The notes under the pieces: model-generated | The model's database searches: none | The model's input: only the letters and a program-made list of their open reading frames with translations | What the model was told of the DNA's origin: nothing | Translations under genes and position numbers: made by a program | Assembly (NCBI GenBank): GCA_947467625.1 | Contig: CANIJN010000025.1 | Location: 1 to 34,873, forward strand | DNA from: Opitutia bacterium | GTDB lineage: Bacteria > Verrucomicrobiota > Verrucomicrobiia > Opitutales > Opitutaceae | Length of the DNA stretch: 34,873 nt | Direction of reading: 5' to 3' | Part shown: piece after piece, positions 14,430-16,854 of the stretch | Layout of the letters: every line of letters starts with the position of its first letter | How positions within the stretch are numbered: the stretch's first letter is position 1

Positions 14430-15191
14430 ATGTCCGATGTAAAGTCAGCCGAAATTCGCCGCTGGAAATGTGTCTGTGCCTATGACGGCACGGGTTTCAC
14501 GGGCTGGCAGAGTCAGGCCGGAGGTCGCGCTGTGCAGGATGTGATCGAGGCCCGGCTGGCGGAGATTTTGGAGTTATCCGTGCGGATTTATGGGAGCGGG
14601 CGAACGGATGCCGGCGTGCATGCCCGGGGGCAGGTGTTTCATTTTGATGCGGCCTGGCCTCATGGCGCGGACCGGCTCTGCAAGGCGCTGCGATGCGGAT
14701 TGCCGGGCACGATCCAGATCCGCAGCGCGCGGGTGGTGGCGGCGGATTTCCACTCCCGGGTTCAGGCCACTCGCAAGCGCTACGTGTACTACGTGCAGCT
14801 CGGGGAAGCCGACCCATTTACCAAGCCGTTTTGCGTGGAGATGTTCCGTCCCCTCGACTTCGCGGCGATGGCCGCAGCGGCGGCGGTATTGCGCGGGCAG
14901 CACGATTTTCGAGCGTTTACCGCGCTCAACGGCACCGAGCGGGAAAATACCGTGCGCACCGTGAGCCGACTCGACATTACGCGGCGCGGGCGGCGGCTGC
15001 AGATCACCGCCGAAGCGGAAGGATTTCTCTATAAAATGGTGCGGAGTTTGGTGGGTGCGCTGCTGGCGGTGGGCGAAGGTCGGCTCACTCCCCAGCGGGT
15101 GCAGGAAATTTTGGACGCCAAGGAACGTACGGCGCTCGTGAAAACGGCGCCGCCGCAGGGACTGTTTCTCGACCGGGTTTTTTATTCATGA
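14430..15191 (+). CDS. truA: tRNA pseudouridine synthase A
   Basis: This 253-residue enzyme isomerises uridines 38-40 in the anticodon stem-loop of tRNAs. Family motifs are present: CAYDGTGFTGWQSQ, the catalytic aspartate in GSGRTDAGVHARGQV, RKRYVYYVQ, and LYKMVRSLVGALLAVGEG near the end. The ATG at 14430 gives a normal length. An open frame extends far upstream, but that part lies antisense to the HAD gene and is rejected. The stop codon overlaps the ATG of comF by four bases (ATGA), so translation is probably coupled. Confidence 0.95.
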   Translation: MSDVKSAEIRRWKCVCAYDGTGFTGWQSQAGGRAVQDVIEARLAEILELSVRIYGSGRTDAGVHARGQVFHFDAAWPHGADRLCKALRCGLPGTIQIRSARVVAADFHSRVQATRKRYVYYVQLGEADPFTKPFCVEMFRPLDFAAMAAAAAVLRGQHDFRAFTALNGTERENTVRTVSRLDITRRGRRLQITAEAEGFLYKMVRSLVGALLAVGEGRLTPQRVQEILDAKERTALVKTAPPQGLFLDRVFYS

Positions 15192-15970
15192 ATCCGACGC
15201 TCAGTCGGCTGATGCGCGGGGTTAGTGATGTCGTGTTTCCGCCCTCGTGTGTGCATTGTCGCAGGCTCGTCGAGCAAGAGCGGGCGGGGGCGAGGGGTGA
15301 GTCCGAGGTCGCCGTCGCGGGCCCGGGCGGGTTTCGGCACCTGTGTAAAAAGTGTGTGGGGGAACTCGATTTTGTGCAGCCGCCGCATTGCACGACGTGT
15401 GGGTCGCCGTTTTACGGCGAGGTTGAGGGGGATCGGGGTTGTCCGAATTGCGAAGGGCTGCATCCGGCGTTTCGAGAGGGGCGGACGGCGGTGCTGTTCA
15501 AGGGACCGGCGCGGGCCTTGGTGATTGAGCTCAAATATCACCGCGGTCTGCACGTGTTGGCAGATATGGAGGAGATTTTTCGCCGCGCGACCCATGTGCG
15601 CGAACTGGCGCGGGGAGCGGTCGTCGTGCCGGTGCCCCTGCACCCACGAAAGTTGCGCGAACGAGGCTACAATCAGGCGGCGTTGCTCGCGGAAATACTC
15701 GCACGGGTGGCGGGCGGCGGGGCGCGCGTTGAACAGGCGTTGCGCCGGGCCGAGGACACGGCCACGCAGACCGCCTTCGACCGCCGCACCCGAATGGCGA
15801 ACCTGAAAAATGCCTTTGCTCTGGCTCGCGGCACCACCCTTAATCCCGACCTTCATTATGTTCTCGTTGACGACGTTTTCACGACAGGGTCCACGCTCAA
15901 CAGCTGTGCGCGGGCGCTCCGTCGTGCGGGCGGTCTCAACCTCGACGTGATCACCTTCGGCCACGGCTGA
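15188..15970 (+). CDS. ComF family protein (zinc ribbon plus phosphoribosyltransferase domain)
   Basis: This 260-residue protein has four CxxC pairs in its N-terminal third (C21/C24, C53/C56, C68/C71, C85/C88), giving a double zinc-ribbon-like region. A phosphoribosyltransferase-fold domain follows, with the PRPP-binding motif VLVDDVFTTGSTLNS near residue 225. ComF in naturally competent bacteria takes part in DNA uptake, while homologues in other species have unclear roles. It sits in the truA-comF-accD-folC run, with the start overlapping truA and accD beginning 11 bases after the stop. Confidence 0.9.
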   Translation: MNPTLSRLMRGVSDVVFPPSCVHCRRLVEQERAGARGESEVAVAGPGGFRHLCKKCVGELDFVQPPHCTTCGSPFYGEVEGDRGCPNCEGLHPAFREGRTAVLFKGPARALVIELKYHRGLHVLADMEEIFRRATHVRELARGAVVVPVPLHPRKLRERGYNQAALLAEILARVAGGGARVEQALRRAEDTATQTAFDRRTRMANLKNAFALARGTTLNPDLHYVLVDDVFTTGSTLNSCARALRRAGGLNLDVITFGHG

Positions 15971-15981
15971 AAATCTCTCCC

Positions 15982-16854
15982 ATGCATTTCGACAAACCGA
16001 CCTATACCGTTCGCAAGACCCGCAAGAAAGACATCCCGAAGGGGGTTTACACGAAAGATCCCGCGAGCGGGGAGATTATTTTCAACAAGGAGATTGAGGA
16101 CAACCAGATGGTGGTCCCGAAGAGCGGTCATCATTTTCCCATCAGTGCCCGCGCGCGGATCGCGAAGCTTTTTGATGAAGGCACATTTGTCGAAGTGGAC
16201 GCGGCGGTGAAGTCCAGCGATCCGCTGAAGTTTATTGATTCGCAGCCGTATCCGGATCGTCTGAAGCGTTACGAGAAAGACAGTGGCCTGCCGGAGGCTG
16301 TGGTGTGTGGCACGGGGAAGATCCATGCGATTGGGGTATCGGTCGCGGTGATGGATTTTCGCTTTTGTGGCGGTGCGATGGGTGCGGCCGCCGGGGAGAA
16401 AATCACGCGCGCCATCGAAGTTGCGTTGAAGCAGAAAATCCCCTGCATTATTTTTAGCGCATCAGGCGGCGCGCGAATGCAGGAAGGGATTTATTCACTC
16501 ATGCAAATGGCCAAGACCAGCGCGGCGCTCGGGCGGCTGGCGGCGGCGAAATTGCCTTACATTTCCGTGCTGACGCATCCGACGATGGGTGGGGTGACGG
16601 CGAGTTTCGCGACGTTGGGCGATGTTATTTTGGCCGAGCCCGGAGCTTTGGTTGGATTTGCCGGAGCGCGGGTGATCAAGGATACGACGAAGCAGACGCT
16701 GCCGCCCGGTTTTCAGACGGCGGAGTTTTTGCTGAAGCATGGCTTGGTCGACCAAATCGTGAGCCGTCTGGACATGCGGGATCGCCTGCGCGATTTGCTG
16801 TTAGCGTTGCATGTGGGTAAGGGGTCCATCGCGCGGGCGGCGGGTCGAAACTGA
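15982..16854 (+). CDS. accD: Acetyl-CoA carboxylase carboxyltransferase beta subunit lacking its zinc-ribbon cysteines
   Basis: This 290-residue subunit of the carboxyltransferase moves the carboxyl group from biotin to acetyl-CoA in the first step of fatty-acid synthesis. The core is normal: AVMDFRFCGGAMGAAAGEKI, the oxyanion-hole region FSASGGARMQEG, and THPTMGGVTASFATLGDV with AEPGALVGFAGARV. The N-terminal region should be a four-cysteine zinc ribbon (TKCPSCG and VCPKCGHH in typical AccD). Here it reads TKDPASG (residues 24-30) and VVPKSGHH (44-51): the four cysteine positions are D26, S29, V45 and S48. The surrounding residues remain aligned, so the loss is not a frameshift. folC follows 26 bases later. 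Confidence 0.95.
   Translation: MHFDKPTYTVRKTRKKDIPKGVYTKDPASGEIIFNKEIEDNQMVVPKSGHHFPISARARIAKLFDEGTFVEVDAAVKSSDPLKFIDSQPYPDRLKRYEKDSGLPEAVVCGTGKIHAIGVSVAVMDFRFCGGAMGAAAGEKITRAIEVALKQKIPCIIFSASGGARMQEGIYSLMQMAKTSAALGRLAAAKLPYISVLTHPTMGGVTASFATLGDVILAEPGALVGFAGARVIKDTTKQTLPPGFQTAEFLLKHGLVDQIVSRLDMRDRLRDLLLALHVGKGSIARAAGRN

What the first reader, a model, noticed from the sequence alone, without database searches (positions are those of the whole stretch)
15982..16854. AccD that has lost all four zinc-ribbon cysteines while keeping a normal catalytic core
Typical AccD has TKCPSCG and VCPKCGHH near its N terminus. Here the aligned positions read D26, S29, V45 and S48, with flanking residues still matching (IPKGVYTK, GEIIF, PKSGHH). 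A zinc ribbon cannot form. The ribbon is linked to substrate and mRNA binding in the E. coli enzyme, so the carboxyltransferase here may be assembled or regulated differently. Selective loss of all four cysteines with the frame kept suggests lineage-wide adaptation rather than decay.
Basis: partly seen in the sequence, partly recalled or inferred. Interest (0 to 1): 0.7.

Follow-up and report, generated by a model that had tools for sequence, protein, structure and literature searches.

The report
AccD ribbon without its zinc cysteines
A bacterial order seems to have replaced the zinc-holding cysteines of an essential fatty-acid enzyme (AccD) with a conserved motif while keeping the domain, which makes it a natural test of what that zinc is for.

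Summary
The window's AccD reads D26, S29, V45, S48 where E. coli has four zinc cysteines; the core is normal, and it is the only AccD found in its draft genome. The loss is lineage-wide. Of genomes with a full AccD, 83 of 137 were read in the window's family: none has Cys29, 45 or 48. In the rest of its order, 54 of 54 lack Cys45 and Cys48, and 52 of 54 lack Cys29. Outside the order, 91 of 117 were read, all CCCC. Loss was stepwise: three cysteines early, then Cys26, which exchanged with Asp at least 4 times (7-10 changes by parsimony). Position 26 is Cys or Asp in 166 of 167 non-redundant rows. The cysteine-poor ribbon is as conserved as the core, has nearly fixed Pro/Gly turns, and AlphaFold2, given no CCCC rows, predicts the usual ribbon. 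Best reading: a working carboxyltransferase whose ribbon no longer needs structural zinc, D-P-x-S/T-G replacing the first zinc knuckle. Metal content, activity and mRNA binding are untested. The motive is open: the order's bL36 also lacks its zinc motif, but ComF zinc ribbons are mostly kept.

The parts
15982..16854 (+). accD, acetyl-CoA carboxylase carboxyltransferase subunit beta, 290 aa, ribbon without zinc cysteines
   Evidence: TIGR00515 366.6 bits over cut-off 317.45; only TIGR00515 match found in the draft genome
16036..16146 (+). ribbon domain, about residues 19-55
   Evidence: AF2 strands 23-25 and 32-34, helix 35-40; pLDDT block means 90, 93, 95, 96 for residues 21-60; within the range aligned to 2f9i_B and, from residue 22, to 2f9y_B
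16057..16071 (+). first knuckle replacement: residues 26-30, D-P-A-S-G (C-P-x-C-G in many CCCC rows)
   Evidence: among 167 cysteine-poor non-redundant rows position 26 is C 111, D 55, H 1; position 27 P in 167; position 29 S or T in 163
16114..16128 (+). second knuckle replacement: residues 45-49, V-P-K-S-G
   Evidence: position 45 V in 146 of 167, position 48 S in 165 of 167, position 49 G in 160 of 167
16147..16851 (+). carboxyltransferase core
   Evidence: PF01039 79 bits, residues 56-236; VIA Z 32.4-34.0 to crystal structures of AccD
15188..15970 (+). comF with a double zinc ribbon (control for general zinc loss)
   Evidence: PF18912 DZR_2 39.9 bits, cut-off 27; four CxxC motifs

Best explanation
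This is the organism's ordinary AccD, but its N-terminal ribbon has become independent of structural zinc. SHOWN: relatives across the order lack the second cysteine pair and nearly always Cys29; a replacement motif, P-x-S/T-G ... V-P-K-S-G-Y/H-H, is kept as tightly as the catalytic core; Cys26 exchanged with Asp several times, with almost no other residue seen. PREDICTED: the ribbon still folds as in cysteine-bearing AccD. INFERRED: Pro and Gly at the turns, Ser/Thr side chains, and a carboxylate (or lone thiol) at position 26 accept the backbone NH bonds that a zinc-bound Cys would accept, as an Asx/ST-type turn (recalled term), and V45 and M43 pack where metal ligand and charge were. The ribbon then keeps its place in the AccA-AccD enzyme, which makes malonyl-CoA without zinc in AccD.
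For: One TIGR00515 match, one accA, and no further PF01039 match in the genome. States by genome, recounted: family 83 read of 137 with a full AccD, none with Cys29, 45 or 48; rest of order 54 of 54 plus two fragments, none with Cys45 or Cys48; rest of class 50 of 51 and rest of phylum 41 of 66, all CCCC. Mean pairwise identity of the ribbon without the four ligand columns, divided by that of the core: 0.993 in 167 cysteine-poor rows, 0.748 in 114 CCCC rows. P27 167/167 against 75/114; G30 159/167 against 51/114; P46 160/167 against 67/114; G49 160/167 against 48/114; M43 143/167 where CCCC rows have K or R in 71/114. Position 26, C/D: 10 changes on the careful core tree, bootstrap 9-11, at least 4 forced by starred branches; 7 on the N-terminal tree; one clade of the D rows within the family rejected, AU p 4.3e-5. 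AF2 on 93 of the 96 cysteine-poor rows of the 85% set, none CCCC: ribbon pLDDT 90-96, same strands and helix as the CCCC control; to 2f9i_B Z 34.0, rmsd 2.0, 259 aligned, model 19-281.
Against: No metal, activity or structure measurement. AF2 was trained on cysteine-bearing AccD structures (recalled, from no call), so its ribbon may be remembered; it does not show stability. A review states that the AccD zinc finger is required for catalysis in E. coli (PMC3896788, passages). The Pro/Gly enrichment may partly be inherited from one ancestor. The free core trees do not hold the cysteine-poor rows as one clade, though the held tree scored better. Parsimony changes at 26 may include reversals to Cys or 5'-end recombination.
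Confidence: 0.72

Rival explanations
1. A weak or rebuilt metal site remains: Cys26 or Asp26 with H50, H51 or other residues still binds zinc or another metal at low affinity.
For: In H. volcanii TFE-alpha a degenerate ribbon with a single conserved cysteine still binds zinc weakly (PMC5861453, abstract and section 14). Position 26 is C or D, both possible metal ligands, in 166 of 167 rows, and H50 goes with D26: 38 of 55 D rows against 4 of 111 C rows.
Against: H51 is invariant in CCCC rows too, so it is not a new ligand. The H50-D26 link is not shown to be independent of descent: only 4 pairs on starred branches. Positions 29, 45 and 48 are mostly S/T, V and S, poor zinc ligands.
Confidence: 0.15
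2. Zinc economy drove the loss: the order lives or lived with scarce zinc and shed zinc from several proteins. This is about the motive and can be true together with the best explanation.
For: bL36 is a form without the zinc motif (one to three cysteines) in 26 of 26 order loci read, with one L36 match per matching genome, and in two more order loci.
Against: Of 27 bL36 loci read outside the order, 21 have the CxxC motif, 5 (f52, f31) lack it and 1 was not recovered; AccD of f52 and f31 keeps CCCC. 39 of the 69 phylum genomes gave no locus for bL36 in that search. ComF in the flanks of accD has four or more CxxC in 85 of 98 cysteine-poor loci and 37 of 49 CCCC loci where ComF was found. Other zinc ribosomal proteins were not surveyed.
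Confidence: 0.3
3. Relaxed constraint: the ribbon is a dispensable relic that is decaying.
For: The ligands that define the domain are gone.
Against: Ribbon as conserved as the core (ratio 0.993); V44 and H51 in 167 of 167 rows, N41 in 166 of 167, one gap at position 48 in 167 rows.
Confidence: 0.04
4. Artefact: sequencing error, or a copy that is not the housekeeping one.
For: The genome is a 362-contig draft, 96.1% complete.
Against: The pattern recurs in 137 genomes with a full AccD of the family and order, including the single-contig assemblies G004, G049, G071 and G075; no second AccD found.
Confidence: 0.01

Closest known systems
Bacterial AccD (TIGR00515): E. coli 2f9y/8uz2, S. aureus 2f9i
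   Same: Near full-length alignment, 47-48% identity in the structural alignment, same predicted fold including the ribbon
   Different: All four ribbon cysteines replaced; the four distinct AccD sequences found in the PDB set all keep them
Pfam PF17848 Zn_ribbon_ACC
   Same: Same position and predicted secondary structure
   Different: No match at E <= 1 and no ligand cysteines
Ribosomal proteins with alternative forms not predicted to bind zinc (L31, L36; PMC13343924, start of abstract in a listing)
   Same: A zinc-ribbon protein that persists in a form without the metal ligands
   Different: There, alternative ribosomal proteins; here, a central metabolic enzyme with one gene copy found
Haloferax volcanii TFE-alpha degenerate zinc ribbon (PMC5861453)
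   Same: A ribbon that lost most ligands while the domain is kept
   Different: A transcription factor that still binds zinc weakly; metal binding of this AccD is unknown

Membership tests
AccD, TIGR00515 | Whole-protein score over curated cut-off | tested here: met
   366.6 bits against 317.45
AccD, TIGR00515 | Carboxyltransferase core of the AccD fold | tested here: met
   PF01039 79 bits; predicted model VIA Z 32.4-34.0 to crystal AccD
AccD, TIGR00515 | Partner AccA in the genome | tested here: met
   TIGR00513 409.2 bits on contig C90; the gene apparently runs off the contig end
AccD, TIGR00515 | Carboxyltransferase activity | not testable with these tools
   needs purified AccA-AccD
Zn_ribbon_ACC, PF17848 | Match to the domain model | tested here: not met
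   not listed at E <= 1; control L050 38.6 bits, cut-off 24.5
Zn_ribbon_ACC, PF17848 | Four zinc-ligand cysteines | tested here: not met
   D26, S29, V45, S48
Zn_ribbon_ACC, PF17848 | Ribbon fold | tested here: inconclusive
   predicted, pLDDT 90-96; prediction only
Zn_ribbon_ACC, PF17848 | Bound zinc | not testable with these tools
   needs metal analysis

The most novel reading that the evidence does not exclude
A whole bacterial order runs its AccA-AccD acetyl-CoA carboxylase without the zinc held to be needed for catalysis and for accA/accD mRNA binding. It converted a metal-stapled ribbon into a sequence-encoded one, with Asp repeatedly standing in for the last zinc cysteine. Such an enzyme would either have lost the mRNA autoregulation or show that it does not depend on zinc.
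Probability: 0.5. Interest if true: 0.72.

Novelty: new variant of a known kind. Interest (0 to 1): 0.57.

Why it matters
The AccD zinc ribbon is described as unique to the bacterial enzyme (title of Bilder 2006 as cited), as required for catalysis, and as the part that binds accA and accD mRNA (review passages in PMC3896788). An order that kept the domain but dropped the zinc ligands is a natural experiment: if its enzyme works metal-free, zinc is a structural staple that sequence can replace, and the mRNA-binding role can be tested without it. The states CCVS, CSVS and DSVS look like living stages of a metal-site loss, and the repeated Cys-Asp exchange suggests a design rule for metal-free ribbons.

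Tried and rejected
A guessed accession came first (NF006078, no use). Second accD: not found. Decay: rejected by conservation. General zinc loss: not supported by ComF, partly supported by bL36; a motif pattern for uS14 in 18 stretches, most of them around bL36, found nothing. AccA: 24 order and 26 other rows show some order-specific columns, not placed in 3D. Covariation: Y23 and H50 go with D26 in counts, but only 4 independent pairs exist on starred branches, too few for significance. Residues 4-13 also go with D26, so some repeats of D on the core tree may be recombination of the 5' end; the N-terminal tree still needs 7 changes. The cysteine-poor rows were not one clade in the quick core tree (3 changes; the scattered pieces are listed), but a tree holding them together scored 101.8 log units higher, p-AU 0.95; the careful tree also places two CCCC rows (L141, L144) among them. 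The CCVS rows (L136, L138) may be intermediates or reversions. Rows left out: 3 of 96 cysteine-poor rows from the structure alignment A1 and 9 of 84 CCCC rows from A2. Genomes without a full AccD were not counted: 13 of 150 family, 11 of 70 order (two of these read as fragments), 13 of 76 class, 17 of 106 phylum (the samples overlap). A 24121-aa open frame in G178 is masked sequence. Plasmids: best place in each of 86 records under 60% identity. No other phylum was surveyed. Literature: nine searches listed no title or abstract start about AccD without its zinc cysteines; the library lacks most subscription papers. Bilder 2006, Benson 2008 and Meades 2010 were not read (Meades looked up and not held). 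The Asx/ST-turn idea is recalled, from no call.

Full report
WHAT IS THERE. The ORF at 15982-16854 (+) encodes a 290-residue AccD (TIGR00515 366.6 bits, cut-off 317.45). Alignment with E. coli AccD, gap-free over residues 9-275, puts D26, S29, V45 and S48 on the four zinc cysteines, while the surroundings still match. The Pfam ribbon model is not listed, although it is found in a cysteine-bearing relative. The four distinct AccD sequences found in the solved-structure set all keep the cysteines.

ONLY COPY FOUND. The draft genome (5.59 Mb, 362 contigs, 96.1% complete) has one TIGR00515 match, one accA and no further PF01039 match. Single-contig relatives carry the same type: G004 and G075 (DSVS), G071 (CSVS), G049 (DTSS). 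G004, G049 and G071 show a single TIGR00515 match; G075 shows a second, weak one in a 540-aa frame, the size of PCC-type proteins.

DISTRIBUTION. The four positions were read in 311 loci, 190 cysteine-poor and 121 CCCC (recounted by genome). Family: 83 of 137 genomes with a full AccD were read; none has Cys29, Cys45 or Cys48; 51 have Cys26 and 32 Asp26. Rest of the order: 54 of 54 with a full AccD, plus two fragments; none has Cys45 or Cys48; two (f20: L136, L138) keep the first pair as CCVS; Asp26 occurs in 8 (five of f7, two of f14, one of f4); one small genome reads HTDS and one has a gap at position 48. Rest of the class: 50 of 51, all CCCC. Rest of the phylum: 41 of 66, all CCCC. The 80 named loci, partly the same genomes, are 50 cysteine-poor and 30 CCCC; many of the cysteine-poor records are titled Opitutaceae, Opitutae or Opitutales, others only Verrucomicrobia or similar. 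No other phylum was surveyed.

HISTORY. Trees used the core (residue 56 on), without the ribbon. The free quick tree scatters a few CCCC rows among the cysteine-poor ones, but a tree holding the 96 cysteine-poor rows together has a likelihood 101.8 higher (p-AU 0.95); the careful tree also places L141 and L144 among them. The simplest order is loss of the second pair and Cys29, then Cys26 to Asp. Position 26 needs 10 C/D changes on the careful core tree (bootstrap 9-11; at least 4 forced by starred branches) and 7 on a tree of the N-terminal part; within the family one Asp clade is rejected (p-AU 4.3e-5). Some of this may be reversal or 5'-end recombination, because an N-terminal residue set travels with Asp26. 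Cys to Asp needs two base changes, yet in 167 non-redundant cysteine-poor rows position 26 is C 111, D 55, H 1.

CONSTRAINT. Without the four ligand columns, the ribbon's mean pairwise identity relative to the core is 0.993 in cysteine-poor rows and 0.748 in CCCC rows. Pro27, Gly30, Pro46 and Gly49 are nearly fixed, Ser48 is in 165 of 167 rows, and the K/R common at position 43 becomes Met. This is what one expects if turns once held by metal must be held by sequence, and if charge next to a zinc-thiolate centre is no longer needed (inference).

STRUCTURE. AlphaFold2 on the window protein with 93 cysteine-poor rows and no CCCC row gives mean pLDDT 87.5, ribbon blocks 90-96, strands 23-25 and 32-34, helix 35-40. 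The CCCC control L050, with 75 CCCC rows, gives the same elements two residues earlier. The model aligns to S. aureus AccD 2f9i_B with Z 34.0, rmsd 2.0 over 259 residues, model 19-281, and to E. coli 2f9y_B with Z 32.6; the control scores 36.0 and 34.8. AF2 may remember the fold, so this is support and not proof.

MECHANISM. I think the ribbon is kept because it shapes the carboxyltransferase, and that zinc has been replaced by sequence-encoded turns: Asp26-Pro-x-Ser/Thr-Gly for the first knuckle and Val-Pro-Lys-Ser-Gly for the second. Shown: distribution, constraint, repeated C/D change. Predicted: fold. Inferred: hydrogen-bond replacement and metal-free activity. The main rival is a weak metal site; in H. 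volcanii TFE-alpha a ribbon with one conserved cysteine still binds zinc weakly (PMC5861453).

WHY. The motive is unsettled. bL36 in the order lacks its zinc motif in 26 of 26 loci read, which fits zinc saving. But 5 of 27 bL36 loci read outside the order lack it too, in families whose AccD is CCCC, and ComF near accD keeps four or more CxxC in 85 of 98 cysteine-poor loci where it was found.

KNOWN OR NEW. The enzyme is a member of AccD. It fails the defining cysteines and the model of the zinc-ribbon Pfam family. A review states that the AccD zinc finger binds accA/accD mRNA and is required for catalysis (PMC3896788, passages seen; primary papers not read). Nine literature searches listed nothing on AccD without these cysteines, in a library that lacks most subscription journals.

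Noticed in passing
L372-L397; L396 is G000:C232:5544-5666: Ribosomal protein bL36 in the window's order is a form without the zinc motif, with one to three cysteines (26 of 26 loci); 5 of 27 loci read outside the order (f52, f31) also lack it.
   Followed up: partly
G002, G051 (family, genus g3); G161, G179, G193, G204 (f13); the 12 f26 genomes: Near-complete genomes with no full AccD, only weak PCC-type matches. AccA is also not over cut-off in the one f13 and six f26 genomes searched for it. The AccA-AccD enzyme may have been lost or replaced more than once.
   Followed up: no
window 15985-16020 (residues 2-13 of AccD): An N-terminal residue set (FDKPTYTVRKTRKKD against FSKPKYSTVTVKKKD) travels with Asp26; L041 has the Asp-type N terminus with Cys26, which hints at recombination within accD.
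   Followed up: partly
L312, L315-L335, L355, L358 against L344-L371 (AccA): AccA of the order has its own conserved changes (numbering of the L325 frame: 192 F to S/A, 90 Q, 121 Q), possible partners of the ribbon change.
   Followed up: no
L238 (G169): In a 0.9 Mb genome of the order the four positions read H, T, D, S, a different set with possible metal ligands.
   Followed up: no
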